A stretch of DNA of 64,000 nucleotides from Lophium mytilinum. Lineage: Eukaryota > Ascomycota > Dothideomycetes > Mytilinidiales > Mytilinidiaceae. Made by a program: the position numbers and the translations under genes. Position 1 is the first letter of the stretch; each line of letters opens with the position of its first letter. Of the stretch, positions 24,214-43,099 are shown piece by piece. Below the pieces are notes generated by a model that worked only from the letters and a program-made list of their open reading frames with translations, made no database searches and was not told the origin of the DNA. The DNA is taken from contig MU004184.1 in assembly GCA_010093605.1 (NCBI GenBank), positions 1,631,897-1,695,896 on the forward strand, read 5' to 3'.

Positions 24214-25815
24214 TCAGCCTCCGCCATCCCTTAGTTGAAGATCCTCAGACCGGCCACCATATACTCCTCCGTCTAAGATCCACTGTTCATTATCAGCGTT
24301 GTCGTCTTGAACTCTCCGCCATGTCTGCTTCTTCTCCATCTCCACTCCCTTCCCCTTCGCGTCAACCCGAGCAACTGGCCGGATCAACGAACCAAGCAAA
24401 GGGTTCTGACTGAACGCGCCCCCTTTACCCCGCCCACCACTGACTATGGGTTCAGCTACTCCTTCATCCTCGTCCTCTGCCTCGCTCTCCGGGGTTTGAG
24501 GTCGGTCCATCTTAGCCATCCTCTTCACTATCTTGCCACCCACAAGATCGATCGACACAACTGCCCTCCGCTTCTCGTACTCTGGTCTTGCGCTCCACTC
24601 CTGCTCCCGTAACACCTTTTGCTGCTTCTTAAGCTGCAGAGCACGCTCCTGCGGACTAGCCCACACGCTTGTCCCCGAATCTGGCGTCTCGAAATCTGCT
24701 GCTTCATCGTGAACCCTCGTCCGCCGCGCATTCTGTGCCTGGAACCCTAGCAGTCTATCGCGATGCTCCTTCGCTTTTGCGAGTCTCTCGGACTCGGAGT
24801 CTGATGCTGGCGCAGACGATAACGGCGTTACTGAGGGCGGTGTGGCGAACGGACGCGGCGCTCTAGCAACTTCTGCGCGCTTCTGACCGGCGTTGTGCGC
24901 GGCCATCTTCTCCTTTCCTAGGTCTTCACGTAACGTGTGGAGCATTGCATGCGTTTCTTCAGAGCTTAGAAGAGGCTGGCCACAGAAAGTACAAGGACCA
25001 AGTCCCTCCTTCACACAGATGATCTTGCCACAGTTGAGGCAATTAGGCGCGGCAGCGAGTAAGGGGTGTCGCGTGGCCATGCAGTTGCACCGGCGCTTTT
25101 GGATGTTGTCTTGAGAGGCGGCAAGCGTGGGATTGGTCGAGATTTCGAGGGCACGGATGGCTGAGTCTAGATCTGCCATTGTGGAGGAGTCGCCGTGCAT
25201 GGAGTGGCCACCAGTGATGTTGACTTTGGCTTTCTGCTGTTGCTTTCCAGGTGCTGGTGAGGTGGTTCGTGATGAGACACGAGGAGGTTTGAGGTCCCCT
25301 ATCATGGCACCGGCCGCAGAAGGGGGTAGCTTTGGAGCAGGGGCAGGACTCGGCCTGGTAGTTGGAAGCTGGACGGCATCTGGCTTTTCGTGTAACGCAA
25401 ATGCGTTGTTTGGCCTGCGAACTTTTGCGTTGCTCGCGACATAGTCTTCTTCGTCCTTCTTAACATACGCGCCTGAAACGTTCCCGTAATTTTCCGGCAC
25501 GCGAGGAGGCGGCAGTCTGTTCAAACCACCTGCTTTCTTCTTCTTCGGCTTGGACTTGGGCACTTCCGATAGATCTGTTCGTGATGCGCCTGGTTGCGTG
25601 CTGTGAGATGCTGACTGCTGCTGCGGCGCACGCCGGTTGTTGAACGCGGTGATGAACTCTAGCGCTTGCGGCGTATCCCCGAGCAAGCCTTGTAGATTCT
25701 CAGCAGCCTCATTCTTGGGCAAGGTGGCTGTATGCGATATAATCTGCTTCAGTGAGTCCTCGTCAAGTGGGAGGAGGCGAGAAAGTTGAGGTAGCGCCCA
25801 GTTTGAGAGGTCCAT
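24214..25815 (-). CDS. TRIP4/ASC-1-type zinc-finger protein (Rqt4-like, RQT complex)
   Basis: A single exon encodes 533 residues. The N-terminal helical segment has a CUE-like character (residues 1-60). A basic KPKKKKAGG stretch lies near 89-97. A zf-C2HC5 zinc finger lies at about residues 243-278, with CNCMATRHPLL, CLNCGKIIC and GPCTFCGQPLL. This finger defines the activating signal cointegrator 1 family, whose yeast member Rqt4 works with the helicase Slh1/Rqt2 and Cue3/Rqt3 to split collided ribosomes. The C-terminal half is charged with coiled-coil propensity (KAKEHRDRLLGFQ). Fungal proteins of this family are about this long. The start codon is 248 bp from the divergent cyclophilin gene. 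Confidence 0.85.
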   Translation of the reverse strand: MDLSNWALPQLSRLLPLDEDSLKQIISHTATLPKNEAAENLQGLLGDTPQALEFITAFNNRRAPQQQSASHSTQPGASRTDLSEVPKSKPKKKKAGGLNRLPPPRVPENYGNVSGAYVKKDEEDYVASNAKVRRPNNAFALHEKPDAVQLPTTRPSPAPAPKLPPSAAGAMIGDLKPPRVSSRTTSPAPGKQQQKAKVNITGGHSMHGDSSTMADLDSAIRALEISTNPTLAASQDNIQKRRCNCMATRHPLLAAAPNCLNCGKIICVKEGLGPCTFCGQPLLSSEETHAMLHTLREDLGKEKMAAHNAGQKRAEVARAPRPFATPPSVTPLSSAPASDSESERLAKAKEHRDRLLGFQAQNARRTRVHDEAADFETPDSGTSVWASPQERALQLKKQQKVLREQEWSARPEYEKRRAVVSIDLVGGKIVKRMAKMDRPQTPESEAEDEDEGVAEPIVSGGRGKGGAFSQNPLLGSLIRPVARVDAKGKGVEMEKKQTWRRVQDDNADNEQWILDGGVYGGRSEDLQLRDGGG

Positions 25816-26063
25816 GATGTCGACTACTGTTACCGTTGGAAAATATACCTCGGGATCCGTATGGATAATTCAGGAAGAGGTGTTTTTGTTTCAATTGCAA
25901 TGGTGTTTGAAGGTAGTCAGTTTGAAATGTGAGGTGGGAAATCACATGGGTTTATGTCAGCAACGCCAAGACGCTCTAGCATTCCCATCGCAAACGTGCA
26001 AGGTCCAAAACCCCCGTAACCACACTGCTCACTCATCTACTTGTGCAAGGTGCAAGAGACAAG
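25816..26063. promoter_or_regulatory. Divergent promoter region, Rqt4-like / cyclophilin
   Basis: This is a 248 bp intergenic interval between divergent start codons. No specific factor site is assigned. Confidence 0.55.
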
Positions 26064-26604
26064 ATGGCGACAGATGTGGCTCTAGAAACGACTATGGTAA
26101 TAAAAGCCAATACACGGACCCATTCAATAGCTAGCTAACGCATTTAAGGGCGTCATTACCGTCGAATTATACAACAACCAAGCCCCGAAAACCTGCAAAA
26201 ACTTCGCGACCCTGGCTCAACGTGGCTACTACAATGGCATAGTAGTTCATCGTATTATCCCAAACTTCATGGTGCAGACTGGTGACCCAACTGGTACGGG
26301 TCGAGGCGGCGCCTCGATCTATGGTGAAAAATTCGAGGATGAGATCGATCCTGGATTGAAGCACACCGGAGCTGGAATCCTCAGCATGGCGAATAGCGGA
26401 CCAAATACGAACGGTAGCCAGTTCTTCATCACGCTGGCACCGACCCCCTGGTTAGATGGCAAGCACACAATATTTGGGAGGGTCAAAGGTGGAATGAGGG
26501 TAGTGCAGAGGATGGGAATGGTCAAGACTGGTCCTGAGGACAGACCGGTTGATGAGCTCAGGATCGTAAAGGCCAAGGTTGTGGAACAAACGGAGGAGAT
26601 CTGA
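26064..26604 (+). CDS. Peptidyl-prolyl cis-trans isomerase, PPIL1-type cyclophilin
   Basis: Two exons, 26064-26096 and 26149-26604, give 162 residues. The 52 nt intron starts GTAATA and ends TTTAAG. The first exon encodes only [11 protein letters not shown]. This is a single-domain cyclophilin. The catalytic arginine sits in VVHRIIPNF (R46), followed by [29 protein letters not shown] and [13 protein letters not shown]. The length and the early TTMG junction match the PPIL1/Cyp1 group, a nuclear isomerase that in animals associates with SKIP in the spliceosome. All residues needed for proline isomerisation are present. Confidence 0.93.
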
Positions 26605-27016
26605 CCTCACGGCATTTTGTATTGCCCAAAAACCATTCCACGGGCCTAGAAGTGAACACGATGGGAGAATCTCACGACAACCTTTCTACAACGGAGCGAG
26701 AGCTGACGAAAAACGTATCGAAAGTCAAAAAGGCCAATGACGGCGTTGAACATGAAAGGACGAAATAAGGTGAATAGGGCTACGTAAGTATGCTATATTT
26801 CCATCTACTGAATCCAGCAGCTAAACTTCGAAGACGAATCTAAGCTCTAACCCACAGTCATTCTTGTCAACCTTGAGGGAACTGATTCACTCTTTTGCCC
26901 GAAGTCCTTAAGGACAGATCTCATAGTGCGGTAGCTCCATGAGAAGCTTTTTTGTTTGAACGCCGATGATATGCGTGGAACGTCAAAATTCTATTCAGTG
27001 AAAAGGGTACGATTGA
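26605..27016. other. Convergent 3' spacer
   Basis: These 412 bp lie between the 3' ends of the cyclophilin and aspartokinase genes. No gene is seen. Confidence 0.5.
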
Positions 27017-28971
27017 CTAGTACAACCAGGGACCTATAGAGCGTTAGTGAGCTGGAAGGTCTAGAGACATTTGTTATCTTCAACCTACCTCTAATGAAAC
27101 TGTTCTCTTGCTCGGAATGTAGAGGTATACGCATTACGTTTGTATGCACAACTTCCATTGCAAGTAAGGCATCCTGCGCTTTCACCACGAACCTACGATG
27201 GAATATCAGCTCAAGTATCTCAGAAACTTCCAGCGATAACGCATTAGACTTGCAAGAGCAAACTTACGATATGTTTATCTCGCTGGCCCCTTGGCTAATC
27301 AGATAGATGCTTACCCTCGCACTAGCCAAGGCGCTGAAAACCTCTCCTGAAATCCCGACCATATTTCGCATCTTATGCCCGACAACCGAAATAATAGACA
27401 TGTGTTTGGCCACGGTTACAATTCCGATCTCAGAGAGCTCTGCCACGGTTTCTTCGATGTTACTGTTGCTCTTCCTCGAGCCCTCAGAAGAGACTGCAAG
27501 ACTGAGCATCTGCTGGCTGCTGCTGATGAGATCAATTGTATATTCATGGCGTCCGAGCCGCTGCGCTATTTGGCCGAGGAACTCTTGAGGTCTTGCTCTA
27601 CCGTTCGAGCGGATGTTGAACACCGTAATCGAGTCCTTTGCCGTCACAGCAGTGGGCGTACGTCGATATTGACTCTCTCCATAGTACCCGTTTTTAGTCA
27701 TAAATACAGCCTTCGTTCTCGCGGCATCGTCTTCAGATGAAACGGGCGATGAATTTCCTGGGGTAGACTTTGGGGAGGTAGTTGGTGTTGCAATGGAAGG
27801 AAAAACTATGGTTCCAGGTCTCTCTGGATGCTTCACATTCTTCAGCCGCAGTGGTATTTGCGCGTTGCAGATTTGCTCGATAGTGAGAGGATGGATCACC
27901 TGTCGCACTGTTAGAGATCTCCACTGGAAACTGAAGTACACCATCTGAATGGAAGCTTGGGGAAACGCACCTCGCTCCCGTAGTATGTAAGCTCGGCAGC
28001 CTCTTCTGAAGTCACCGTAGCGAGCAGCCTGGCCGACTTCACCTTTCGAGGATCTGCCGTAAATATGCCATCGACCTCTTTCCAGATCTGCAGCTCTTCG
28101 GCGGTGACCGCAACAGCACACAAAGCGGCACAGAGATCAGAATAGCCCCGACCTACGCTACTGACCAGCGATTCAGGCATCGCGCCAAAGAAGCCTATGC
28201 AACAAGGTTACCTCTAGCAGATATTATTATTAGGGGTCCACAAAAGAGGTTCATACCAGTAATGACCGGCACTCGTTCTCCACAACCGTTGACTTTCTTC
28301 CGAATTGCGCCCGCCAGGCCTCCCAGAAACTCAGCGGGGTGACGTCTGAATGCGGCGGCGAGCTCTTTCTGACGACTCCCGTAGGTTTTTTGGACGATAT
28401 CATCCAACACAACTACTTCGGCATCGATGTCCTATACAGATACTAGTAAGCACCGTCTCAAATGGCAACAAATGTCACAAACCTTCATTTTCAGCGAAGC
28501 AACTACCAGCCGACAAGCTAGTGTCTCGCCGACCGCCAGGACTCGATCTTGAGTACGCTCCGATATCTCGCCAATAGTCCAAGTCGCCTTAAGAAAGCTT
28601 CGGAGGTGCTCGCAGTCATTTTCGATGCCTTCGAGTAGCTCATTAAGCACGGCTTCATGGCCTTTTTGCTGCTCAGCGCCACCGACAACAGTATCCGCAG
28701 CGTCCAAGTGCTCTAGTTTAATGATGTCGATAACTCGATCCAGCTCCACGGTTGACGTCTCGCTGGAGGTCGCGAGAGTTATCGCGTCGAGGAGGAGACT
28801 TGTTGTTCCCTGTGTCTTCTGGGTGCCTGATCGAGCGCTGCAAACCACAGCGACTTTGTACCTTTTCAGATAGTCGGGGATGATGGTGCCAGTGATTGGT
28901 TCCAGCAGCTTCCCTATAGAAGTACCTCCGTATTTCTGCACAACCCATTGACGTGTCTCAATTGAAACCAT
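27017..28971 (-). CDS. Aspartate kinase (HOM3-like), first gene of the cluster
   Basis: Six exons on the minus strand, 28971-28483, 28431-28257, 28194-27971, 27899-27268, 27192-27089 and 27033-27017, give 546 residues. The enzyme phosphorylates L-aspartate, the entry to homoserine, threonine and methionine. The kinase fold begins with KYGGTS at residues 13-18 (KFGGTS in most relatives). It continues through VVCSARSG, AVGETLACRLV, ITGFFGAMPESLVSSVGRGYSD and WKEVDGIFTADPRKV. Tandem ACT domains follow, including TVFNIRSNGRARPQEF and ISVVGHKMRNMVGISGEVFSAL. These normally bind threonine for feedback control. The last exon is only 17 nt and yields RGPWLY, the ending expected for the family. Exon 1 is more diverged than the rest, so this may be a pathway-specific paralogue and not the housekeeping enzyme. 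Confidence 0.88.
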
Positions 28972-29691
28972 ACTTGTATCGAGATGTCTGGATGCTAGGA
29001 AGAATGATGTTACGATTATTTACGGACACTACATGCTATGAAAACTTCCTTGTTTATACAAGTATAGCCATTGTGTAACCCTGCACATCTCTCGTGAGGT
29101 TGAGGCGCTTGCCACTAAGTTGCTGCCGAAGGCGCTAGGGCGATGCCGAAGTGCACTGGGCCCCCACGGGTTTTGATTGTGGATCACAAGCGGAGCGGCA
29201 GCAGCCGCAGTCTTACGTCGGCATTCTAGCTTTCCTTATCAATCCCCGGGATATGGTCTGGTTTAGATCGCCTTTGGGCTGCGGCACGGAGTAACGTCCT
29301 GAGGAAGGAGATGGACTTACGATTGGCCGTGTGTCTTTGGAAGTAAGCTACGAGCAAGTACGCACAGCGGAAGCATGATGGAGAGGTTTCGTACTTTACA
29401 GGCTCGCATACAGCACTGTTTCATAATATTAGGCACACGGATTTACCACTGCTTAAGTACAATCCTCCTCACTCAACACAATTACGAGGAGTACTCCAGC
29501 CCAAAGTCAAAAGGCAGTCTGGTTCGGACTACTTGAAACTTGACATTGCGTCTAGATATCTCAAACTTTATGGGGATACTTCAAGCAGTGGTAAAGAGGT
29601 GCACAGACTCAAAGCCTATATCTGTAGTATGCAGGAGATGATGGGATCTACACTTTTCTGTACATGAAGACGAAGAAACTCTTGCAAACCC
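28972..29691. other. Spacer between aspartokinase and MET2-like gene
   Basis: It holds the aspartokinase promoter and the MET2-like 3' flank, both on the minus strand. No open frame of interest is seen. Confidence 0.45.
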
Positions 29692-31279
29692 TTAAAACTC
29701 CCCAGATTCTGCCTCCCCAAAGACGCTACTAACGATTTCATCTGGTCTCACTCCCTCGATAGAGTCTTCAAGATCCGTTTCGTAGAACCAAGGGCATCGC
29801 TCTCGGAGGTGGCACGTGATTGCCCGGCTCAGTGCCTCAAATTCTAAGAGGAACCCGTCGTGTCCGTCTTGGGACTCGAGATTGAGGAATTTCGCCTCTG
29901 GTAAAGCCTCCGCGAGTTGAACCTGTTGCTCCGCCCTGAACAGAACGTCCGTTTCTACGCTGATTACAAGGGCTTGCGGAGGGACATTCTTGAATACATG
30001 CTCAAGATGTTCTTTGTGAGGAGGTATTGGGATATCGAGCCCTAATTGTATAGGTAACCGGCCGCGGGTGACGTCGTGAGTGTCCATTTTCGCCGTGAGA
30101 TGGATGTAGCAGTTGGCATCGAATCTCTGTGAAATTCAAAGTATTAGCCAAGTTTTCAATTGCAACATATACTCGTCTAGTTGAGGGCCTGAAGAACACC
30201 GGGAGCGTAGTAGCTTGCCTTTAAGAATTTCGCTGCCTGGTATTTGAGGTAACTTTGAGCTGCGAATTCCATGGGCGCTTGACCGTTCTGATCTATACAT
30301 GGATCCATCCGAGACTCTCTTGGATTTTCATTCTGACACGATAGCGGAGTTGATCCTACGCAACTAGAAGACGACGGTGGTGTTGATAAGCCTGTCGGCA
30401 CCACCGACGTAGATTGCTTCCTTTGGGTTGCTAGTCGACGGCTGAAGCGCTCTTCGAACGAGTTGTGCGAGCGATAAGTCAGCATGGCTATCATCCTCGC
30501 CGTACTTAGTCCTTCAATGGGCTGTCCTGATGGCTCTGGAATATACCAACCGCTTTTAAAATTAGCATCCGCGTAGATGCTCATTCGTTGCGTTTCTCCC
30601 CACGCGATACCCCAGGCACTATGGTAGGCCGAAGTAGTAATCGGAACAATGTTCTTGACATATCCAACCGGTGTGCAAAGCGGCCACTCCAGGGTAGCCA
30701 TTCCACCCATAGATCCCCCGATCACAGCTGCGACTTCAGAGACACCGAGCTGATCAAGAACCATTTTTTGAATACTAGAATTCATGGGATTAGAACGCCT
30801 CCCCAACCCAGCTTTTCTGGTTCTTACCGAACGTCATCACGGACACTGGTCCTAGGAAATTCCGGACCATACTGCCGGCCAGTCTCAGGGTTGATGGTGA
30901 GAGGTGAAGCCGTCCCGTAAGGTGATCCGAGCATGTTCGCGCAAAAGATGAAGAACCGTCGAGGGTCAAACGCCTTCCCTCTACCCATCAGCGGTTGCCA
31001 CCAGTCTTCCGCGTCGGCACTGCCTGAAAGAGCGTGACAAAGAACTAGACAATTACTGCCGCTTTCGTCAAGCGTGCCCCATGTTTTGTAGGCAACAGGG
31101 ACCGAATAAAGCTGATGTCCGGACTCAAGGGTAAAGTGCGGTATCAGTGCGAACTTCTGATGTTTTACCAGATCGGCATAGTAATTGTGCGGTGCGGTGA
31201 TAGGGCTGATCTCTCGTGAAATAGTAAGTAATAAGTTCGGAACGCCGCGTTGTGGTAGTTCAGACTTACTAGTTGTCAT
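29692..31279 (-). CDS. Homoserine O-acetyltransferase (MET2-like)
   Basis: Three exons, 31279-30828, 30774-30219 and 30126-29692, give 480 residues, close to yeast Met2 (486). The enzyme transfers acetyl from acetyl-CoA to homoserine. It has an alpha/beta-hydrolase fold. Motifs are LCHALSGSADAEDWW, NMLGSPYGTASP and the nucleophile elbow VIGGSMGGM with serine at residue 172. The later acid lies near VETDVLF and the catalytic histidine is in SQDGHDGFLLE. A Ser/Pro-rich insertion lies around residues 260-300, as in other fungal homologues. Intron 1 is GTAAGA...TTCTAG. Intron 2 appears to use a GC donor (AAG|GCAAGC) with a normal CAG acceptor, and is required to give FLKRFDANCYIHL. The gene is divergent from the nitrilase. 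Confidence 0.92.
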
Positions 31280-31855
31280 TTTAGCTTTCCGTGGGAGTGT
31301 TCTTCCTAGCGATGAAATGCACGAGGATAGGTCTCTTGATGCAAGGAAAGGTCAAGGATGGACTTAATCTGGCAACACCAGATATTGACGGAAGTTTTAC
31401 TAGCACTGGCTTTTGAGGGATTCGTACGAGGTAAAGCAAAGTCCATAGACAGTTCTAACGCATCAAGTCCAGCGGTATAGTAAGGTGTTAAGACTTTTCT
31501 AAAAGCATTAAACTCACACTAGAGCTATAAGTTTCAAATGTAAGCAGGAATTACTAGTACCCGGGGATAGCTTGCAAAAGCAGCGTGGCGAATACTCAGG
31601 TAGGTTCTCCGCAGGGTTCATTTACGCGAGATATGAGATATCCTTGTTGACTCGGCGTTTGATATGTAAGTGTATCGGGGTCTGGGTCGATCTGCCGACC
31701 GGCTCGCCATGTGCTAAAAAGCACCTTACCTATGCCAGAGTTATTTTGCAGCCTCCGGTGCAGAACCTCTTTAAGAAAAGAGGTCTGCTTGATGGGTATC
31801 ACCGGAGCAAAAGACGAAGACTTGCAGACATTATTTCTCAGCATTCTCTAAGAAT
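31280..31855. promoter_or_regulatory. Divergent promoter region, MET2-like / nitrilase
   Basis: These 576 bp lie between two divergent start codons and are probably shared control DNA for both genes. No regulator site is identified with confidence. Confidence 0.5.
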
Positions 31856-33252
31856 ATGACAGGAATGCTTGGAAACACGGTCAAGGTAGCGGCAGTCCAA
31901 GCTGCGCCCGTATCCTTCAATCTGCACGAAAGCTTAGATAAGGTTTCAACACTCACCACGGAGGCTGCCAGGTCGGGTGCCGATCTGGTAGTCTTCCCGT
32001 ATGCCGCTCTCTTTCTCAGATGTCGATTAAAAGGAAGCTAATCATAACTTAGGGAAGGATTTCTTTCTGCTTATCCGTGGAGATACGCTTTTGATGCTAC
32101 GATTGGAGCTCGGGAGCCAAGAGGTACATCAATTTTACTTACCACGAATAAGGAAGATTCTGACACTCCGGGTTGCTTTAATAGGTCGAAAATGGTTTGC
32201 GAAATACTACAATTCTGCGATAGCCATTGAATCTCCAGAATTCCAGATCCTGCTCAGCATTGCTAAAGCAAACAAAGTCATTCTTTCCGTTGGAATAATC
32301 GAAAAAGATGGAGGTACATTATACTGCTCCGCAGTTCTTATTGGAAGAGATGGAAAGTTACTCTCTAACCACCGAAAGGTAGGCAGGACTCACGCTAGCT
32401 ACAGGAATGATGAACGTTGGTAACAATGACTAGCTGATCCCTACGGCGGCGGAGAGGCTAGTATGGGGCCGCGGGTCCGGAGACGGCCTGAAAGTTGTGG
32501 ATACAGACATTGGAAAGGTCGGAGGCCTGATATGGTATTTGATTGCCGTGATTTGTGCAAGCGATACATGCATCTAATGAAACGTAGCTGGGAGAACTAC
32601 ATGCCCGCCGCAAGGCTGGCGTTGTATCAGCAGGGAATTGAGTGCGTCAATCTTCGCGCGGCTAAACCTGTGAGAGCGCTAATAACAGTCTGAAGAATCT
32701 GGCTTGCCCCAAATGCCGACGACCTGCCAAGTTGGACAGCTTCGATGCAGCATATCGCAAAAGAGGGTCGTTGTTGGGTCATCTCAGTCAACCAGTTTTG
32801 CAAGGTAAGGTTCTAGAAAAGCCTCGCTGTCGATACTCATAACAGCAGGTGTCCGATTTTCCTTCGGACTATCCACCATTCACTCCTGAGCACTATGATC
32901 GACAGCCCGATGGGTCGGCTTGGACTCCGGATGCTATTCTCAACCATGGCGGCTCATGTGTCGTTGGCCCATTGGGAGTTTTTCTGGCTGAACCTTTGTG
33001 GGACAAGGAAGGCATTATCTATGCTGATCTCTCGAGAGACACTTTGATTGAATCTAGGGTATGTAAATCCGATCAAGATGATACTCCGGCGCTGATGTCA
33101 GTACAGATGGATTTCGATCCAGTCGGAAGCTACTCTCGACCGGACATATTGTGAGTTACCGCAGTCTATGAGGGGGTACATATGCTAAGAATTTGGGCAG
33201 TTCTTTGCACGTTAATACGAAGCCCGGTGTGAATGTTGTTCTGAAGGAGTAA
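31856..33252 (+). CDS. Nitrilase (C-N hydrolase superfamily), intact triad
   Basis: Nine exons are assembled: 31856-31998, 32053-32123, 32185-32378, 32434-32534, 32588-32641, 32696-32804, 32849-33058, 33107-33150 and 33201-33252. They give 325 residues, the usual nitrilase length. The phases are consistent and every intron is GT-AG. The catalytic triad is complete: Glu49 in [12 protein letters not shown], Lys136 in [13 protein letters not shown], Cys170 in [14 protein letters not shown]. Further family blocks are [10 protein letters not shown]-like [30 protein letters not shown] and [10 protein letters not shown]. Nitrilases turn R-CN into the acid plus ammonia. The specificity (aliphatic, aromatic, cyano-amino acid or cyanide hydratase) cannot be read from sequence by eye. 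A second ATG nine bases downstream is an equally good start. Its place between MET2-like and sulfhydrylase-like genes is unusual. Confidence 0.9.
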
Positions 33253-34070
33253 AGGAGACGTTGATTGCACCTCAAAGTCGACGAGGAAGAGTATGCTCAG
33301 AGCGCCAGGAGAGTCTAACGCCCTAAGACAGCGTGCTAGACTAGGCGTAGGCCAGATAAAGAAACATTTCCAGGGCCTTGTAGTAAGAGGCTCTTACGTC
33401 GATGGCTTGTTCTGCTGCGGCGAGTTACAAGATGAAAGCCATGCAGTGAAGAAGTTTGAAGAGCGCCAAGCGCTGACTAACATGCACGTGACACTCCTTT
33501 TCGCCAGTTGGACTTGTCCCTCCCCGCTCATTCATCCCTCAACAACCATATTCTACTCACAACTCCACAGGACGCCGGGCTGAGCTGGCCTAGCAAACGC
33601 ACGATCTTACGGAGGTCTATTTACAGTTCTGTGGCGTGTTCTACATATCTGATGCCGAATGCTCATAACATGGCCGTCATCAATGCCGAAGCACAGTGGG
33701 CCAGATGCCGATCGGCAAGATGCAACGGCAGAGCATTCTACAATGTTTCAACCGCCTGGGCATGCCTTATCCAATCAGAAGCGCGATCGCTCACAAGTTC
33801 CCGTGATTTTCTCAATAAACGTCGTTGATAACCCACAGGGCGCTGGTAGGCCCTATTTTTCCTCTCTATGTGTGCATATCTAGGTACGTCTTGCACGGGA
33901 TAGTGAGATTGTCAGACCATCACTGCTACTCGGCGTCAGGGAAGAGGTCTATAATGGATATGTACTGTCATTCGCCTGTCTTCCACGAGGTATTTGACTG
34001 ATGCGCTTTTTTGCTCGGGCTTTGGATTAACTCGAGCTTGTTCTTCTTACTCCCAACGCCAACACGTGCC
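33253..34070. other. Intergenic, nitrilase to cluster regulator
   Basis: These 818 bp have no supported gene. A CACGTG palindrome lies at 33485-33490 and another at 34063-34068, just before the regulator start codon. Confidence 0.5.
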
Positions 34071-36535
34071 ATGGCCATGACAACAACAAGCAAGGGCAAG
34101 GGCAAGCGAACCAAGCCTCCTGTTAAGGTAGCTTGTCTTGCTTGGTAAGTAAGATTTAGGTCTATGTTACATTCAGTTAACATAGAGTGATGCTGACGGC
34201 GATAAAAGTCGAGCTTCACGCATTAGATGTGACGGTAACACTACCTGTGCGAACGTATGTACCGAACGAAGTCAAAAACTGTTCGGGAACTGATGTTGTA
34301 AAAGTGTTTCGCCAAGGATCAAGAGTGTGTATACACCAAAAGCAACCGTGGTGGGCCTCGGGTCTCGCGGAAAAAGGCCGCTCAGTATGTTCAACCTCAT
34401 GGCGAACGAGAGCAGCAAGAGCAGTTTCTTCCCTTCGATGACCTTACGCAAATCGACCTCTCGAGTTCGCTAGAATCATATCAGAGCTCATATGACGATA
34501 TGTTCGGCGACATCATCATGCCCATGATCACGCCAGGGGCGGGACTGAAGAGCCTGGACAGTGATCAAATCTTTCATAGTATCTTTGGCAACATAACCGA
34601 GTCTAGCTCAGAGAACTCGAGTTCCTCAATCAATGAGTTCCATGCACCGGCTGCAGAATATCGACTTCGACCACGTACGTACGGAAGTGACAAAGACATG
34701 TGAGCATCACTCTTCGCTAGCCCAGATCTCTTTTGATTGCTCCATTCGAGCATTCACATATACGTGTCATCCAGGTCCGCACTTAGACCAGGCGCAAAAG
34801 CTGATATAATTCCAAGACTGAATGCGTATTATATCTACATTCATCCTTATTTCCCGATCTTGCCGCCGCCGGAGTCCGTGGTCTCTATCGACAACCCTTT
34901 GGCCGACAGGTCACACGAGTTCGAACCTTCCTCTCCTCTGAGTCTGGCTATATCAGCTATATTGTCGCTAGTGCCGAACCCTGAGGATAGGTGTCCCCAA
35001 AGTCCGGAATCCGTTCTCTTTCGGAGGAAGCAAGCCCACCTCTTTGCACAGTTGGCCATGGAGAGCATCGAGATTGAGTCGGAAATACTTGCCTCTACGA
35101 CCTCGCCTGCTGAGGCTCTCGGTAGCAAGCCGTCATTATTCAGAAGAGATCTTTTCCACCCGAAGACTCCCGTGGAGCTAGAAAGTATCCTAGCATACCT
35201 TATGCTCAGCGGCTACGAATATGCACAAAGAGGGAATCTAGCAAAGATGCGAAATAGAGCTAGCCAAGCCCTTGATGCCGCAACCCGGTTATGTTTACAA
35301 AAGGATATCACAGGGGTTGGTGATATTTACCGTGAAGCAAAACAGAGGGCTTGGTGGATGACAGTAAGCAATTCTCTTGTAGTACAGAACTATAAAACTA
35401 CAGTGGCTAATTAAAGCAGTATGTTTGTGTCCTACAATGCTCCATCGTTACTAGCACCGCTCCAATAATGGCAATTGACCATCAATCTTTCACTACCCGG
35501 CTTCCGACAATCAAAGCAGACCCTGGGGCTTGGAAGGCATTCATCGACGCCCAGCAAATGATATGGAGGTGTACAGAGTATACTATATCCTTGAAGCACA
35601 TTCTGGACTCTGGAAGAAGCCCCTCGGTGCTTGACTCGCAGATGAAAGCTCTGGATCATGAACTGGACTCGCTGATTGAAGACCAAAATTTGGATCTAGA
35701 CATAACATACTGTGACCTTGTTGACGTCGACGAAGGTGTGCTCGCAAGATCGCTCCGGGCGCAGGCCCAAATAAAGCTTCAGAGCTCTAAGATTAAGCTC
35801 CATCGGTACAGGGCATTTCAAGACGCTCCACTTTTCACTCAGAAACACTGCGATCTCCAAGAAAGATCAAAGCCCTCTTCTATCGTTACTCCTCCCTCTT
35901 GCTGTAGCGGTTCGCTGTTCTCAGAGTTTCCCATTTCTTCTCCAGACCGCATGAGGCGCACCTCCTCCGCGTCAATTTCCGAAGCGTCGTCACCTGGCGA
36001 ATCACTACTCAGCGATATACCATCGATGAAAGTTTGCTTGAAATCTGGATTGTCAATATCGAGGCTCTTTGAATCTCTCCCATATCCATATTCGATGCGA
36101 GCACTAGATACATCTTCGTTTCCATTTGCATATCACAGCGCCGTCATTCAAGCGCCCAGAACTATGCCGGCTTTTGCCTGTTGCGCAATGCAAAGCAGGT
36201 AATTACCCCGAACTACGGCTCAGAGTTTTCGTCAATCGCGTACTAATAAGACATCCGCAACAGCTATGCATTGCTCATGCTCTGCCGAAAAAGTCGTGAT
36301 ATCAACCGAGGCTCATACAGTGGAAATCCAGCTGCTAGTGGGCTCGGGGAGCTCTATTCAGGAATACGGCGTGTATTGAGTGCACTTGAGAACTATGCGA
36401 TTGCTTTTGAAGCGATTGACGGCATGCGAGGTATGCATGAACTTCATCCGTAACAACATAGGTACTGATGAAAGAAAGGTCAAATACAAGAGGCACTTGA
36501 AGTAGCTATTACTGATGATGGAGCAACGTGGTAAC
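34071..36535 (+). CDS. Zn(II)2Cys6 transcription factor, likely cluster regulator
   Basis: Seven exons, 34071-34144, 34209-34254, 34305-34699, 34775-35363, 35420-36198, 36264-36430 and 36480-36535, give 701 residues. The zinc cluster CLACRASRIRCDGNTTCANC with FAKDQECVY has canonical spacing C-x2-C-x6-C-x5-C-x2-C-x6-C at residues 22-48. The basic linker RGGPRVSRKK follows. The C-terminal part is the fungal transcription-factor domain: YIYIHPYFPILPPP, QRAWWMT-YVCVLQCSIV, then MPAFACCAMQS-SYALLMLC and ALENYAIAFEAIDGMRG. The zinc cluster is spread over three exons. It is nuclear, binds DNA through CGG half-sites as a family property, and sits inside the amino-acid cluster. A local pathway activator is the simplest reading. 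Confidence 0.9.
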
Positions 36536-37536
36536 ACACGGTGGGACCAATAGACGTGATTAGTTAAGGATACGCGTCAGCGTCTTCATCAAGTCGATTT
36601 GCGAGCTGAGCGATTTGATATCTATACCAGTTTTTACCGAAGCCGCTTGTATCTACTAGGTGTCTGAGGAGCAATTTGCGACCATATATTGACACTGTCT
36701 TGAATATCTCCTTAGCGCAACACGGCAACGGATCTAGCGGAGAGTTAGATATGTAGAGATGAGTCTCTGGGCGCGTTATCTTCCCTTGTCTACCTAACGT
36801 GATTTCCAATCACATGGGATGGGCCTCTTGAACAGTGCAGTCGTATTTATAGCTTCATTTCGGGGAATTTTGCTATGTTTACAGCGCCACATGCCGTTGT
36901 GGAGACTCGAAGAGCACGATGTCATGTTCTCGACACCATTGCTACACGCAGGACCGAGGTTCAAGATGCAAGATGTCACGTGGACTGCCACTTTATGTCC
37001 AACAAAGCCTGTTACCACAATCGTCTAGAAACTCCACACAAGCCATCTCACCACCATCTACTTCCGCGTCTTCTCGTGGCTGCGAATCTTGTCAGACGGG
37101 AAATCAGGGTGCGTAATTGTAGTACAATCTCTATTCCCCGTACTAGTGACGCAGACATCTGTACTAGTGACGCGGGCACCCATACTGGTGCCGCGGGCGC
37201 CGATGGGCTTAGACCGTTTCATGCGGGGAATGCTCTCGGGCTTTGCCTCAAATGGCTCACGGCATCCAATGCCCTCGATAGACACAGGCATGTAAAGCAA
37301 ATACAATCGGCTTCTGATAACAGGCGACGCAACGGTACCGTGGATCGGCCAGAGATAATGGAACGCATACTGAAGTCGGTGCCGAGTTCAGTCACCACAA
37401 TCACTTAGACCGAAATCATTCTCATATCTCTTATATTTAACGCATCTATCCAGTCTTCATATCTCTAATCCAGTCAATATCACTCGCACACGCAATTCTA
37501 CTATTTTCTCACGTCCCGAACTTAATTCCTATCAAC
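36536..37536. other. Intergenic before sulfhydrylase-like gene
   Basis: About 1 kb contains a 21 bp tandem repeat (listed separately) and a CACGTG at 36977-36982. Short open frames around 36875-37408 have no recognisable domain. The leader before 37537 is AT-rich with repeated ATCTC and CAATC words. Confidence 0.45.
37141..37203 (+). repeat. Three 21 bp tandem units
   Basis: Three units of 21 bp each begin TACTAGTGACGC or TACTGGTGCCGC and differ in the second half. They start at 37141, 37162 and 37183. In one plus-strand frame they would encode a seven-residue repeat of the type VLVTRAP. The array is located about 330-400 bp upstream of the sulfhydrylase-like start codon. Confidence 0.8.
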
Positions 37537-39144
37537 ATGGTATCAGGTCACTTGGGTCAAGTTACGAAGTAGGCTTTCCCCTACCGTCATATTCTATGAC
37601 CAAGGACATACTGACAGTATAGGACCCCAGAGTTTGAGACGCTTGCTCTCCATGGCGCTCAAGAACCAGATCCCATAAATGGCTCTCGTGCGCTTCCTCT
37701 CTACCAGACTGCTGCATACAACTTCACAGATGCCGCCGATGGTGCTAGCAAGTTCGCGTGGTCTAAGGATGGCTACGTCTATACTCGTATGGGCAATCCG
37801 ACCAACTCAGTATTCGAGAACCGCATGGCAATGCTTGAAGGAGGAGTTGGAGCGGTCGCAACAGCGTCTGGTCATGCTGCTCAGGTAAGTTCTACGAAAG
37901 CGCATATGCAACGAAGCTTATATGTACATCAGTTCATGGCAATTACGTCAGCATGTGAGCCAGGACAGAACTTCATCAGCACAATGAATCTCTATGGAGG
38001 AACATTCAATCAGGTATGCGGTGTATCTTCAAGTGCCGAAACTTTCACTAATTCTATAAATCAGTTCCGAGTTTATATGAAGAAGTTCCACATTACGTGC
38101 AAATTTGTTGAAGGACAAGATCCCAATAACATCAAGAAGGCCATCGACGAGAACACACGCGCGGTGTACGTGGAAACAATCGGGAACCCCCAGTTCAATG
38201 TGCCGGACTTAGAGGCAATTGCCAATGTCGCCCACGAAGCCGGAATACCTCTTATCGTTGACAACACATTCGGCATGGGCGGCTACCTTTGCAAACCCAT
38301 CTCTCTGGGTGCCGACATCGTTACCCACAGCTGCACCAAGTGGATTGGTGGTCACGGTACATCAATGGGAGGTATCGTCATTGACGGCGGCCATTTTGAC
38401 TGGTCTGCCAGTGGCAAGTTCCCCGGCTTCACCGAGCCCGCAGATGGCTACCATGGCATGCGGTTCTGGGAGACCTACGGGCTCAAAGCGCTGTCAGCCA
38501 AACTTCGCATGGACGCAATGCGTGACTTAGGTCCGTGTATGTCCCCTTTCAACGCTTGGCTGTTCTTGCAGGGTCTGGAGACTCTAGCCTTACGAGGTCA
38601 AAGACATGTTGAAAACACTCTCGCATTCGCAAAGTGGCTCCAGGCCCATCCATGCGTGGCTTGGGTCAACTACCCCGGTCTCGAATCACATACAGACTAC
38701 GCACGTGCCAAAAAGGTGCTTCCAAAAGGAGCTGGAGGCGTTCTTACCTTCGGCGTAGCTGGAAACATCAGCGAGGTTGCTGCTGTGGTTGACAACCTGA
38801 AGCTTTGCTCTCATCTTGCCAATGTTGGAGATGCGAAGACACTCATCATCCACCCTTGGCGGACAACCCATCAGCAGATACCCGACCAGGAAAAGATCCG
38901 AGGTGGAGTCACACCAGACATGATTCGAGTCAGTCTCGGCTTAGAACATATCGAAGACATCAAACATGACTTCGAGCAGGCGTTTGTGGGAGCTGGTTTG
39001 AAGCCGGCGCAAGGATGGATTCCAACATGGAAGAAGGATATGGAAAGCAAAGACTGGAACGAGGGCACCCTGTATGCACCCGCACCCGGAGCTCCCGAAG
39101 GTGTCAAGGAGATGGCTGCTCGTGCGATAAGTGCAAGCGCATGA
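37537..39144 (+). CDS. O-acetylhomoserine sulfhydrylase-like PLP enzyme
   Basis: Four exons, 37537-37568, 37623-37884, 37933-38013 and 38065-39144, give 484 residues. This is a fold-type I enzyme of the Cys/Met metabolism family. Motifs are FETLALHGAQEPDP, YVYTRMGNPTNSVFE, ASGHAAQF, VDNTFGMGGYLCKP and the PLP lysine K217 in THSCTKWIGGHGTSMGG. Later blocks are YPGLESH and GGVLTFGV, then HPWRTTHQQ. Members exchange the acetoxy group of O-acetylhomoserine for sulfide (Met17), for cyanide as a side activity, or for carbon nucleophiles in natural-product enzymes such as Fub7 and CndF. The protein is about 40 residues longer than Met17, mainly from a C-terminal tail after FVGAGLKPAQGW. Introns 2 and 3 are 48 and 51 nt, stop-free and in frame. 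Confidence 0.9.
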
Positions 39145-39523: not shown

Positions 39524-40750
39524 CTAGTCTGTCCCTCCGCTTGTGATTCTACGACCATATCGGGTATATAGCTTAGTGAGGAGCTCCCGCGCGATCAGGC
39601 CTCGCTCGAAGGACGTTCGGGGATCAAACTTCGGACCAGAGTATGGAAATGAGACAGTCCCTGTGAAGTCGGTCTGCCCCTTTTCATAGAAGTTCAGTGA
39701 AAAGCTCTCTGCCTTCTTCAACATCTCTCTCAAACATGCACCGATGGGCTCGCCTCTCTCTTCCGCTTGCGCGGCCCAGCTCCATAACGATGGGTCGTGG
39801 AAGTCAACGCCGTCCTTGCGCGGGAGGATCTGCGCGTTGAATAGCAGATGACGCACGATTTGCATATTGCATCCATGATCGATGACTGCAGCCTGGATGA
39901 AGTCGGTTGATAGTGCGTTCCCTACGCCCAACAGAACGGCAAGGGCTGCGACAGCTCGTTCATTTCCTTCTTGGATGGCCTGGTGAAGCCCTTGCCTTGC
40001 CGTCTCTCCTGCCATCGAGCCCGCCCAATCAATCTCGCCATGAAAGCAGACCAAAACATACAGAAGATCCGCCTTGGCCGTAGTCCAAGGTCCGCAAAGT
40101 AGTCGGTCAGGAATGGCAAATCCTTCGGCGAACCCTAGATAGTCAATCTTGCATAGCTTGTATGGCCACAATCCGTCGAGGTAGCTTGGGTCTGGAGCTT
40201 GGATTCCGGTGTCGCCCCATCCACTCGCTTCTGAATTTCGTTTGAGAAGAGTATAGGCTCTCTCCGCATAGCTGAGGAAGAACGGCCATGAGAAGAAACG
40301 GCAAGCTAGGAGCTCTGATTGGAGGGTTACGGGGGGGTTTTGATCGCCACGCGTTTCGAAGAAGGCTTTGATACAAAATCGAATGCGGATGTTCTGTGAA
40401 GAGAGCTTGGCACCGAGTAGTGAAGAGCTCCGGGGTAATGCAATATTCATGCTATGGAGAAAGATGATTTCTAGAAGCTCCTGGGGAATGCCCTGGAGAG
40501 AAGGTTTCGCTGCCTCGGCCATCTTCCTGGAACGGTTTCTTGCTCTCTGCTGTCGTAGTTGTGACGGGAACTCCAATACCTGCCGCTTCACAGGCCGAGG
40601 AGCGTCGCTTCGAGCAGAGTTGTCGGAAGATGCCAGCTGCGATGGTGCCCTTCGCTTGGTGCGTTTCCCCCGGACGTTGATCGGGGTGAGGGCCATGTAT
40701 AGACAACTGGTGCCTGGGAGGCGTCGTCTCGCAAGGATTAGCGGTTCCAT
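39524..40750 (-). CDS. Hypothetical F-box-like protein
   Basis: A single exon encodes up to 408 residues. A second Met at codon 19 (40696) is an alternative start. The N-terminal third is basic and low in complexity (KRTKRRAPSQL). A short F-box-like motif follows, LQGIPQELLEIIFLHSMN, near residue 85. The remaining ~300 residues are a helical domain common in fungal F-box-type proteins of unknown role, with SYAERAYTLL, LYVLVCFHGE, ALAVLLGVGNAL and HGCNMQIVRHLLF. The last two resemble degenerate ankyrin-like helices. A possible role is substrate selection in an SCF ubiquitin ligase, by family analogy only. It is divergent from the nucleoporin gene at a distance of 167 bp. Confidence 0.7.
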   Translation of the reverse strand: MEPLILARRRLPGTSCLYMALTPINVRGKRTKRRAPSQLASSDNSARSDAPRPVKRQVLEFPSQLRQQRARNRSRKMAEAAKPSLQGIPQELLEIIFLHSMNIALPRSSSLLGAKLSSQNIRIRFCIKAFFETRGDQNPPVTLQSELLACRFFSWPFFLSYAERAYTLLKRNSEASGWGDTGIQAPDPSYLDGLWPYKLCKIDYLGFAEGFAIPDRLLCGPWTTAKADLLYVLVCFHGEIDWAGSMAGETARQGLHQAIQEGNERAVAALAVLLGVGNALSTDFIQAAVIDHGCNMQIVRHLLFNAQILPRKDGVDFHDPSLWSWAAQAEERGEPIGACLREMLKKAESFSLNFYEKGQTDFTGTVSFPYSGPKFDPRTSFERGLIARELLTKLYTRYGRRITSGGTD

Positions 40751-40917
40751 TGCGAGTGGAGGTGAATCTTGCCGGTGGCGCTGGCCTAAACCCGAAGCTG
40801 TGAGAACGGCCTTGGCGCGGAGATTCGTTCTTCCTCTCCAAACAAAACATCCCAGCTGAACTTCACTTCATCAACCTCGCGGCCGACACCGTTTAATCTG
40901 TCGCGTTACTCTCTACC

Positions 40918-42269
40918 ATGCAGGTCCACGCCGTCCCGGATGCTGAGCGCGTACACGACTCTCTTGGGCGTCAGCTCCCCTGGGGTTTCGAATATGCGGA
41001 GTGAGTTAAAACGTGCAATTCTACACCAACAACTTCAGGATAGCTAACATGTTTCTGTCGCGACGTAGCTCCGATCACAACCAGCGTCGCATACCCGAAG
41101 AGAAGGGCCCTTTCGGCAAGTCGACGAGAGGCAGGCTGGGCAAGTCACGAACCAAAACAGCAACGCCTGCGCGAACTGTCGACCAAGCGAAGCTAGAGAA
41201 CTTGCGCGCTATCGACGACATATTCAACGCCTTCAAGAACGAGCCCAAGAATAAAGAGAGCCAGACAAGTCCAAGGAAACCAGGCGGAGGTCTTGTGGCT
41301 TCACAATCGGCGCCAAACCTCGACATCGGCGGAGCCATCGCTGCGGGTAGTGCTCAACAGACAGTCTCCACAGAGCCGACGCCTGTGATTCTGTACGGCT
41401 ACGGGAGCGACCTGCAATGGGCAGCGATTGACCACTATGAGAAGGTGTCTAACGGGTTTATCTATGAGGAATACGATCGCACCCCTATGCAGCAGAGATA
41501 CAACCTCTCTCTGAGTCTGCATCGGTCAGCCGCGCAACGAAGTCTCGCCAAGGAAGCCCTCCGGGACACTAACAAGTTCGTTGGAGGCTATCACTGGATC
41601 AAAGTCACCTTCGATTCGCCAGAGTCCGCAGAGCGTGCCTGTCACTATTCACCGCACGTAATCCATGGATACCAGGTTCATGCAGAGAGATATAGAGGGA
41701 CTGGACCAAACGCGGATGTTGCTTTCCCGGCCACCAGTGGGCTTCTCTCCTCGCAAACTAGTTCGCCGAATCCGTCATCAACGACACTCCTTGCGGCATC
41801 ACAATCACAGACCTCCGAGACTGCGTCATCCGCGACAGCAACCGCATCGATACCAGCTTCCACCGTTCAAAATACCGCCAGTCGAAGTGTTGCAGGCGCT
41901 AGAGCGGGGTTGGTACTGGGAAACCGAAATCAGGCCGCTGAACCGGCAGGCGCTGTTGCCTCAGGCACGCAACGGGAACCAGCCCGGCAGCCCACCCTCC
42001 GGATCAAAAGTGCCAAACTAGGGAAGATGTTGCCAGCCGATCAAGCTGTCCTTCCAGCGGCTCCTCTCTGGCAACAGACGATGAGAAGTGTCCCCGTGCT
42101 CGGATGGGTGTTTGGCAGCGGACATGAAATTATTGGCAATCAAGTGCCGCGTAAGGCGGATGGGGGCTTCGACTCCGATGGCGCCAGCGTCTACTGGAAG
42201 TTCTGGTACATGATCGACTCTTGCTTTGGGACTGACTTCTGTGGCGTTCGGGGTGATGAAGATGATTAA
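40918..42269 (+). CDS. Nup53/Nup35-type nucleoporin (MPPN/RRM-like domain)
   Basis: Two exons, 40918-41000 and 41069-42269, give 427 residues. The 68 nt intron starts GTGAGT and ends GACGTAG, restoring GFEYAD-SDHNQRR. The N-terminal region is basic and Ser/Thr-rich. The Nup53/35/40 RNA-recognition-like domain lies roughly at residues 130-235, with PVILYGYGSDLQWAAIDHYEKV, GGYHWIKVTFDSPESAERA and HGYQVHAERY. The C-terminal part is Ser/Thr/Ala-rich and ends with an aromatic amphipathic segment, ASVYWKFWYMIDSCFG. Such a helix anchors this nucleoporin to the pore membrane in other species. The role is as a structural linker of the nuclear pore inner ring. Confidence 0.82.
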
Positions 42270-42576
42270 AGATCCACTCTCGAGATCTGGGAGTTACGGA
42301 TTGGCTCGGAACAGCTGTGGGTTGGCTTGGAAGGTTTTGCATTGTGGCATGGCATGGCGTTTCTGGCATATGTGTATTTGAACGACACATTGACATCTCG
42401 AAATCTCTTTGACTCCAAGGTTCCAAGCGTTTGGGCTACACTGCGGGCCACCATACTTCAAAATACCCGCTTCATTTTGTATACATTAGCATGGAAACAA
42501 AACACATACAAGACTTTTCTGTCCACTGCAGACGCATTAAAGTAAGTCGAGGTACGCATGACAGTAGTCAGAAGCT

Positions 42577-43018
42577 TTGGCCATATCTCAGACAACGTCC
42601 TGCCTTCCTTCCTCCCCAATGCCTCCAGCCCCACCTTGATCTGGTTCCTCATCCCTCGCAGCCTCCAATTCTTCGACTCGCTTCCCCATCGCTACTCTCG
42701 CCTCCTCAAACCATTCTAAGTCGCCTCATACCTCGTCTTGTGATTCTCCTCTTGTATCTCAATCTCGCACTTCAGCGCTTGCGTGTCGCTCTTCAGTACG
42801 TCGACGGCCCACTTGGCGTCACTCTCACGTGCGTACCATATGGTTAGGAAGAGGTTTGTTTCTTTCTTGGGGTGCAAGACAGAATGCTTGCAGTCGCAGT
42901 GGAGGCAGTCTATCTCTTCGTGTAGAAGAGCTTGGGCATCGTTGTTTCCATTCACAGCTTGACGTCTTTGAAAGAATTTTAGGTGGGCTACGGGTGCACT
43001 GGTGCAAGTACTAATCAA
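42577..43018 (-). CDS. Possible small minus-strand gene, acidic coiled-coil tail
   Basis: The minus strand shows two open stretches in different frames. The upstream one, with CLHCDCKHSVLHPKK and ESDAKWAVDVLKSD, ends at 42716. The downstream one, with EWFEEARVAMGKRVEELEA, ends at a stop near 42591. The amino-acid makeup of both looks coding: charged, helical and lacking the Ser/Pro/Arg bias of chance frames. I cannot place a convincing intron to link them. No family is recognised. It may be a short, poorly resolved or decaying gene. Confidence 0.25.
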
Positions 43019-43099
43019 AAGGATGAATAATATCCATCATTACCTCCCATCGAACTCTTTGTGGCTGTTGTTCCATGTGCCTTAGTAGCTACCAGAGCC

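What the first reader, a model, noticed from the sequence alone, without database searches (positions are those of the whole stretch)
27017..39144. Five-gene O-acetylhomoserine cluster: aspartokinase, MET2-like, nitrilase, Zn2Cys6 regulator, sulfhydrylase-like enzyme
Seen: five complete genes in 12 kb. Aspartokinase and MET2 are on one strand. Nitrilase, regulator and the O-acetylhomoserine (OAH) PLP enzyme are on the other. Known: genes for methionine synthesis are normally scattered in fungi. The fusaric acid cluster carries an aspartate kinase (FUB3), a homoserine acetyltransferase (FUB5), an OAH PLP enzyme (FUB7) and Zn2Cys6 regulators, and relies on primary metabolism for the two middle steps. 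Inference: this is a dedicated supply line for O-acetylhomoserine feeding an uncharacterised product, with a nitrilase as a new component. No PKS, FUB6-like reductase or FUB8-like NRPS is in the window.
Basis: partly seen in the sequence, partly recalled or inferred. Interest (0 to 1): 0.88.

Follow-up and report, generated by a model that had tools for sequence, protein, structure and literature searches.

The report
Fungal O-acetylhomoserine–nitrilase gene cluster
A fungus carries, side by side, its own private copies of genes that make the activated amino acid O-acetylhomoserine, an enzyme that uses it, a nitrile-cutting enzyme of the kind that handles cyanide-derived amino acids in plants, and a regulator, which together look like a kit for fixing cyanide into glutamate, although no experiment has yet tested that.

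Summary
Five intact intron-bearing genes (26991-39144) encode an aspartate kinase, a homoserine O-acetyltransferase, a nitrilase, a Zn2Cys6 regulator and an O-acetylhomoserine (OAH) PLP enzyme. Separate copies of kinase, acetyltransferase and OAH sulfhydrylase, presumably housekeeping, lie on other contigs, so this is a dedicated OAH supply. The fusaric-acid analogy is only partly right: FUB7 is sister to this genome's other MET17-like enzyme, the cluster enzyme branches before yeast Met17, and window+FUB7 is rejected (AU p=0.00125); no PKS or NRPS domain matched in the window. The nitrilase is the new clue: its best solved match is plant NIT4 (299 vs 174 bits), whose substrate is a cyano-amino acid. 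Best explanation (0.4): OAH + HCN gives gamma-cyano-alpha-aminobutyrate, a reaction published for a Bacillus OAH sulfhydrylase, and the nitrilase turns it into glutamate/glutamine: fungal cyanide fixation. Against: two near-invariant residues at or beside a pocket-lining motif are replaced (T194N, R198L), bacterial NIT4-type genes rarely adjoin OAH enzymes (1 of 80), and nothing was assayed. Main rival (0.3): OAH supply for an unknown natural product.

The parts
26991..28971 (-). aspartate kinase (second HOM3-like copy), 5 exons, 573 aa; last exon uncertain
   Evidence: AA_kinase + ACT; TIGR00657 289.1 bits over cut-off 208.7; 40.9% to the C17 kinase; kinase and ACT parts equally conserved, 46.8% and 45.7%
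29692..31279 (-). homoserine O-acetyltransferase (second MET2-like copy), 3 exons, 480 aa, second intron GC-AG
   Evidence: (NF001209 MetX 347.3 bits over cut-off 331; TIGR01392 417.4 under cut-off 500); 47.4% to the C6 MET2 model
31280..31855 (.). shared divergent promoter region MET2/nitrilase, one AGATATG site at 31629
31856..33252 (+). NIT4-type nitrilase, 9 exons, 325 aa; E49, K136, E143, C170 kept; R68 present; T194N and R198L unusual
34071..36534 (+). Zn2Cys6 transcription factor, 7 exons, 701 aa
   Evidence: Zn_clus 28.5 bits over cut-off 21; Fungal_trans 19.5, below its cut-off 23
37537..39144 (+). OAH-dependent PLP enzyme (OAH sulfhydrylase family), 4 exons, 484 aa, K217 the invariant Lys of TKWIGGHG
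   Evidence: (TIGR01326 609.9 bits over cut-off 495.1)

Best explanation
The cluster is a self-contained, separately regulated cyanide-fixing route. Aspartate kinase and homoserine acetyltransferase push carbon from aspartate to OAH (the two middle steps come from primary metabolism). The OAH enzyme replaces the acetate of OAH with cyanide, giving gamma-cyano-alpha-aminobutyrate (L-cyanohomoalanine), and the NIT4-type nitrilase hydrolyses its nitrile to glutamate and/or glutamine. The Zn2Cys6 protein switches the set on. Net: aspartate + HCN becomes glutamate, one carbon longer. Shown here: the genes, their families, their separateness from other copies in the genome, the NIT4 kinship. Inferred: cyanide as the nucleophile, the nitrilase substrate, and joint regulation.
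For: A nitrilase beside an OAH gamma-substituting enzyme suggests a nitrile with an amino-acid tail. The nitrilase's best solved match is Arabidopsis NIT4, 298.9 bits against 174.3 for the next; own nitrilases on C5 and C3 do not show this (119.7 and 130.3 bits to NIT4, other nitrilases higher). It falls in a 38-row group holding AtNIT4 (SH-aLRT 100, quick tree). NIT4 is a beta-cyanoalanine enzyme, and two fungal NIT4-like nitrilases act best on beta-cyanoalanine (PMC7503981: outline, passages, section 2.3, first part of the discussion). R68 lies 102 residues before the catalytic Cys, as in NIT4 (R95/C197) and as position 80 lies before C182 in Capsella nitrilases; a conserved Arg there goes with NIT4 specificity (PMC6214922, passages). 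An OAH sulfhydrylase of B. stearothermophilus forms gamma-cyano-alpha-aminobutyrate (PMC9317851, passages; of the cited 2003 paper I saw the title only). P. pseudoalcaligenes keeps nit4 in a cyanide-induced cluster with amino-acid genes such as cysM and metF (PMC11049912, PMC8567248, passages). Second copies of AK and MET2 fit a reaction that uses OAH stoichiometrically. AGATATG occurs 6 times in 3 of 4 cluster promoters and once in the rest of the 64 kb; 0 of 300 shuffles reach six with at most one outside.
Against: Nothing was assayed. At and beside a pocket-lining motif the nitrilase has T194N (T in 80 of 80 bacterial relatives) and R198L (R in 79 of 80), both kept in AtNIT4 and the own C14 nitrilase, so its substrate may not be a cyano-amino acid. 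R68 is in 80 of 80 bacterial relatives, so it marks the group and does not prove specificity. Fungal NIT4-like enzymes also cut arylaliphatic nitriles (PMC7503981). The own C14 nitrilase is NIT4-like too, yet no kinase or OAH-enzyme hit lies on that contig. The OAH enzyme keeps 36 polar columns invariant among 16 OAH sulfhydrylase-family rows and shows no cyanide mark known to me. Only 1 of 80 bacterial nitrilase relatives has an OAH enzyme nearby; 0.19 expected by chance. The AK promoter lacks AGATATG; with up to four copies allowed outside, 1 of 300 shuffles reaches six. No cyanide-insensitive oxidase was among the window's Pfam hits. The AK ACT part shows no sign of lost feedback control.
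Confidence: 0.4

Rival explanations
1. A FUB-like supply line for an uncharacterised natural product: the OAH enzyme joins the homoserine skeleton to a carbon, nitrogen or sulfur nucleophile, and the nitrilase trims a nitrile in a precursor or product. Works like FUB3/5/7 but is not derived from FUB7.
For: Same three functions and Zn2Cys6 regulation as FUB (PMC6738028, passages); separate copies of all three enzymes; changed nitrilase motif. A methyltransferase-domain ORF lies about 19 kb away at 7032-7634.
Against: No PKS, NRPS, oxidoreductase or transporter domain matched in the ORFs of 150 aa or more, so no nucleophile maker is in view; the OAH enzyme is not in the FUB7 lineage. Partners could be encoded elsewhere or in short exons.
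Confidence: 0.3
2. A conditional sulfur (or methanethiol/selenide) assimilation set that makes homocysteine or methionine from OAH under special conditions, with a nitrilase that handles unrelated plant nitriles.
For: OAH enzyme scores over the OAH/OAS sulfhydrylase cut-off (TIGR01326) with 36 invariant polar columns kept.
Against: The genome already has another MET17, MET2 and aspartate kinase; it does not explain a NIT4-type nitrilase between MET2 and the regulator.
Confidence: 0.15
3. The nitrilase serves beta-cyanoalanine (from OAS or cysteine plus HCN, or from plant hosts), and the OAH genes are needed for methionine repair during cyanide stress; a cyanide-response cluster without a gamma-cyano step.
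For: Characterised NIT4-type enzymes of plants and fungi prefer beta-cyanoalanine (PMC7503981, PMC6214922); in P. pseudoalcaligenes nit4 sits with sulfur amino-acid genes.
Against: Needs a cyanoalanine synthase, none recognised in the cluster; T194N and R198L depart from the NIT4 norm.
Confidence: 0.1
4. Accidental neighbours with no joint function.
For: The five-gene set was seen in one genome only; no fungal relatives could be searched.
Against: Expected about 2.5e-6 by chance; all five frames open; similar GC3 of 48-55% in the five genes against 68-69% in the other copies.
Confidence: 0.05

Closest known systems
Fusaric acid (FUB) cluster of Fusarium
   Same: dedicated aspartate kinase, homoserine O-acetyltransferase and OAH PLP enzyme with C6 regulators (gene list seen in PMC6738028, passages)
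   Different: no PKS, NRPS-like, dehydrogenase or transporter match in the window's ORFs of 150 aa or more; has a NIT4-type nitrilase; OAH enzyme is not of the FUB7 lineage
Bacterial gamma-cyano-alpha-aminobutyrate synthase (OAH sulfhydrylase of B. stearothermophilus; product also reported from Chromobacterium violaceum in 1970)
   Same: same enzyme family and the substrate OAH (the 1970 report seen as a reference title in PMC13320846)
   Different: I saw no description of a dedicated OAH supply or nitrilase with it; one review table gives its organisms as bacteria, while the same paper's text says that a list of enzymes including it occurs mainly in bacteria and in some fungi and mammals, without saying which (PMC13257105, passages)
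Plant NIT4 and fungal NitTv1/NitAb nitrilases
   Same: best solved match, catalytic tetrad; R68 is 19 residues after the first Glu, as R65/E46 in NitTv1 and R64/E45 in NitAb by my numbering (PMC7503981)
   Different: [10 protein letters not shown] in place of APTADxRxxW; clustered with OAH genes
cio-nit4 cluster of Pseudomonas pseudoalcaligenes CECT5344
   Same: NIT4-type nitrilase grouped with amino-acid genes and a regulator gene, induced by cyanide (PMC8567248, PMC11049912, passages)
   Different: bacterial, with a cyanide-insensitive oxidase and CysM; no OAH-forming genes in the list seen; its authors doubt that CysM makes cyanoalanine

Membership tests
Fusaric acid (FUB) cluster | PKS FUB1 and NRPS-like FUB8 | tested here: not met
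   no such Pfam match in the 57 ORFs of 150 aa or more; the rest of the genome was not searched for them
Fusaric acid (FUB) cluster | FUB7-lineage OAH enzyme | tested here: not met
   AU p 0.00125 against window+FUB7
Fusaric acid (FUB) cluster | aspartate kinase, homoserine acetyltransferase, Zn2Cys6 regulator | tested here: met
NIT4-type nitrilase | closest to NIT4 among solved nitrilases; Glu-Lys-Glu-Cys tetrad | tested here: met
NIT4-type nitrilase | conserved Arg at the specificity position (Capsella position 80) | tested here: met
   R68, spacing 102 to Cys as in NIT4; also in 80 of 80 bacterial relatives
NIT4-type nitrilase | motif PTAD-x-R shared by AtNIT4 and nearly all relatives (not known to me as a defining feature in print) | tested here: not met
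   PNADDL
NIT4-type nitrilase | high activity on beta-cyanoalanine | not testable with these tools
   needs enzyme assay
OAH sulfhydrylase family (TIGR01326) | score over curated cut-off and PLP Lys | tested here: met
   609.9 over 495.1 bits; K217 invariant
gamma-cyano-alpha-aminobutyrate synthase | forms the product from OAH and cyanide | not testable with these tools
   no sequence mark known to me
cyanide hydratase / dihydratase | closest to these among solved nitrilases | tested here: not met
   114.3 bits to cyanide hydratase 9ofa and 148-157 to cyanide dihydratases and 28to, against 298.9 to NIT4

The most novel reading that the evidence does not exclude
A eukaryotic gene cluster that fixes hydrogen cyanide onto O-acetylhomoserine and hydrolyses the product to glutamate/glutamine, with its own private OAH supply and its own transcription factor: a gamma-carbon counterpart of the plant beta-cyanoalanine route.
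Probability: 0.35. Interest if true: 0.85.

Novelty: new variant of a known kind. Interest (0 to 1): 0.62.

Why it matters
It would show that fungi can use the OAH branch to deal with cyanide, beside cyanide hydratase and beta-cyanoalanine hydrolysis, and it gives a natural substrate to test for a fungal nitrilase; [quoted passage not shown] The product L-cyanohomoalanine is a methionine analogue that E. coli methionyl-tRNA synthetase loads into protein, although it did not slow growth there (PMC13320846, passages), so a paired nitrilase would make sense. If the natural-product rival is right, the cluster still points to an unknown OAH-derived compound.

Tried and rejected
FUB7 lineage: rejected. 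Bacterial guilt by association: one locus (L092, Chloroflexi MAG) has a homoserine O-succinyltransferase-family gene, an OAH enzyme and a divergent NIT4-type nitrilase side by side, but it is 1 of 80. In its phylum 32 of 301 genomes gave 33 nitrilase matches; 30 were fetched as loci (three were not), several with less than 1.5 kb of flank, and only the same locus has the OAH enzyme. CGG/CCG spacing motifs: none passed my threshold of three sites and twice the expectation. GATA sites: 0 to 5 per kb by promoter, 2.2 in the window. Feedback-insensitive AK: no sign. PLP hits on C3, C7, C17 and C4:2343001 gave partial or unlike models and the C19 and C5 ones only 29-31% identity; not counted as copies. 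AA-kinase hits on C19, C4:1237250, C1 and C24 are not aspartate kinases by tblastn. Paper searches: (nitrilase, O-acetylhomoserine, aspartokinase, fung) found 0 papers; searches listed none that announces such a cluster in title or abstract start, but searches listed 20 of 73 and 20 of 101, one search listed 5 of 269,062 because either term sufficed, and only the open-access library is searched. Structure prediction was not used. The organism was not identified; 'filamentous ascomycete' is my inference from introns, gene types and genome size.
Full report
What is there. The window lies in a 43.18 Mb, 24-contig genome (C4:1631897-1695896). Reading the sequence and splicing by hand gave five open genes with fungal-type introns: aspartate kinase 28971-26991 (minus, 5 exons, 573 aa), homoserine O-acetyltransferase 31279-29692 (minus, 3 exons, 480 aa, one GC-AG intron), nitrilase 31856-33252 (plus, 9 exons, 325 aa), Zn2Cys6 regulator 34071-36534 (plus, 7 exons, 701 aa) and OAH PLP enzyme 37537-39144 (plus, 4 exons, 484 aa). 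Pfam and, for the four enzymes, NCBIfam agree. Neighbours are of other kinds: a C2HC5 zinc-finger ORF (24217-25869) and a cyclophilin (26131-26601) on one side, and on the other two ORFs without Pfam match (39527-40867, 41010-42266), the second of which resembles a nucleoporin from recall only. Of the 57 stop-to-stop ORFs of 150 aa or more, 49 were scanned, one (36803-37405, in front of the OAH gene), and seven are exons of the five genes. Eight of the 50 matched a family: the two just named, a C2H2 zinc finger (54154), an eIF3m-like PCI protein (4531), a methyltransferase domain (7032-7634), two pieces of TYW3 (8267, 8794) and a CREG barrel (59130). None is a PKS, NRPS or transporter. Shorter exons were not scanned.

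Second copies. Pfam scans of the own genome and a MET2 protein search found an aspartate kinase on C17 (40.9% to the window kinase), a MET17 on C15 (55.8%) and a MET2 on C6 (47.4%; 57.5% over the first part); models, comparisons. I call these housekeeping copies by inference. A third MetX-like protein on C6 (1626980) is more distant (34%). The remaining AA-kinase hits are not aspartate kinases: tblastn of both kinases finds only the C17 locus among the loci checked. One kinase, one MET2 and one MET17 within 12 kb is expected about 2.5e-6 times (arithmetic that takes gene positions as random).

The OAH enzyme is not FUB7. In the PDB the window enzyme is about equally like yeast Met17 (511 bits) and FUB7 (506 bits), whereas the C15 enzyme is much closer to FUB7 (722 bits) than to yeast Met17 (616). 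In a 16-row tree the window enzyme branches outside yeast Met17 + (C15 MET17 + FUB7), support 99/97 for those three; holding window and FUB7 together costs 33.5 log-likelihood units (AU p 0.00125). Window with FUB7 and C15 costs 13.6 (p 0.009), but that group was named after a first tree had been seen. It looks like an old paralogue. It keeps 36 polar columns invariant in all 16 rows, K217 among them, and differs at 14 columns where at least 14 of the 15 others agree. Its letter make-up is flagged as unusual.

The nitrilase is the strongest lead. Against solved structures it hits Arabidopsis NIT4 at 298.9 bits, then another nitrilase at 174.3 and cyanide-degrading enzymes at 148-157. Of three own paralogues tested, C14 also hits NIT4 first (231.8); C3 and C5 do not. 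A scan of prokaryote genomes, capped at 592 candidate stretches, confirmed 411 relatives and kept 80 (identity 42-50%). In a quick tree of 85 rows the window protein falls in a 38-row group with AtNIT4 and C14 (SH-aLRT 100); its place inside is unresolved and its end branch long. E49, K136, E143 and C170 are kept in 80 of 80 relatives and in the window protein. R68 is 102 residues before the catalytic Cys, matching AtNIT4 (R95, C197) and position 80 against C182 of Capsella nitrilases (PMC6214922, passages). PMC6214922 names a pocket-lining motif that, from its G209W mutant, starts at residue 209, which by the same spacing is window 197-200. R198L lies in it and T194N three residues before it; the relatives have R in 79 of 80 and T in 80 of 80. 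This may mean a changed substrate, which fits a longer cyano-amino acid but fits other nitriles too.

Published facts used. Fungal nitrilases NitTv1 and NitAb act best on beta-cyanoalanine and also on some arylaliphatic nitriles (PMC7503981: outline with abstract, passages, section 2.3 and the first part of the discussion). B. stearothermophilus has an OAH sulfhydrylase that forms gamma-cyano-alpha-aminobutyrate (PMC9317851, passages). A review table gives that enzyme's organisms as bacteria; the same paper's text says of a longer list of enzymes that they occur mainly in bacteria and also in some fungi and mammals (PMC13257105, passages). The compound is loaded by E. coli methionyl-tRNA synthetase but did not slow growth (PMC13320846, passages). 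In P. pseudoalcaligenes nit4 is in a cluster with cysM and metF and is induced by cyanide (PMC11049912, PMC8567248, passages), although the authors think that CysM may not make cyanoalanine.

Regulation. In four promoter regions AGATATG/CATATCT occurs six times, in three of them (31629; 33644, 33875; 36747, 37423, 37458), and once elsewhere in the 64 kb (42582). None of 300 dinucleotide shuffles gave a 7-mer with six copies in at least three regions and at most one outside; with up to four outside, 1 of 300 did. It is absent from the kinase promoter and from 1 kb before the modelled starts of the three other copies (the C6 start is unsure). The motif was found by searching k-mers of 7 to 10, so treat it as a lead. 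GC3 of the five genes is 48-55% against 68-69% in the other copies, which suggests a different expression level or history.

Bacterial neighbourhoods. Of 80 nitrilase relatives with up to 8 kb on each side (1.10 Mb in all), one (L092, a Chloroflexi MAG) has an OAH enzyme and beside it a homoserine O-succinyltransferase-family gene. My first search used the window proteins as queries and missed that gene; searching the 80 loci again with it found no other. Chance gives about 0.19 OAH enzymes in that much sequence. In the phylum search 32 of 301 genomes had a nitrilase at E 1e-60 or better, and among the 30 loci fetched only the L092 locus has the OAH enzyme within the flank. So bacteria give no statistical support, only one striking parallel.

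Verdict. A dedicated OAH cluster is well supported. What it does is open: cyanide fixation through gamma-cyano-alpha-aminobutyrate is, in my view, the reading that best explains why a NIT4-type nitrilase sits inside it, at about 0.4; a natural-product supply line is close behind at 0.3.

Noticed in passing
L092:349-4405: Chloroflexi MAG locus with a homoserine O-succinyltransferase-family gene, an OAH enzyme and a divergent NIT4-type nitrilase side by side; singleton among the loci examined.
   Followed up: partly
window 30127-30218: GC-AG intron (AAG|GCAAGC) in the MET2-like gene.
   Followed up: no
G000:C14:1051437-1052165 (L030): Second NIT4-like nitrilase of this genome (231.8 bits to 6i00); may be the widespread ascomycete NitAb type, not tested.
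   Followed up: partly
G000:C6:1626980 (L050): Third MetX-like protein, 34% to the window one; resembles a serine O-acetyltransferase-type enzyme from recall only.
   Followed up: no
window 31629, 33644, 33875, 36747, 37423, 37458: AGATATG/CATATCT in three of four cluster promoters, once elsewhere in the window.
   Followed up: partly
L131:7980-8927: Granulosicoccus nitrilase is the only one of 80 relatives without the motif Arg (APTADDEPTW), partly like the window motif; its neighbours were only listed as ORFs.
   Followed up: no
window 42500-46500: Stretch with only one ORF of 150 aa or more (45169-45744, no Pfam match); nature unknown.
   Followed up: no
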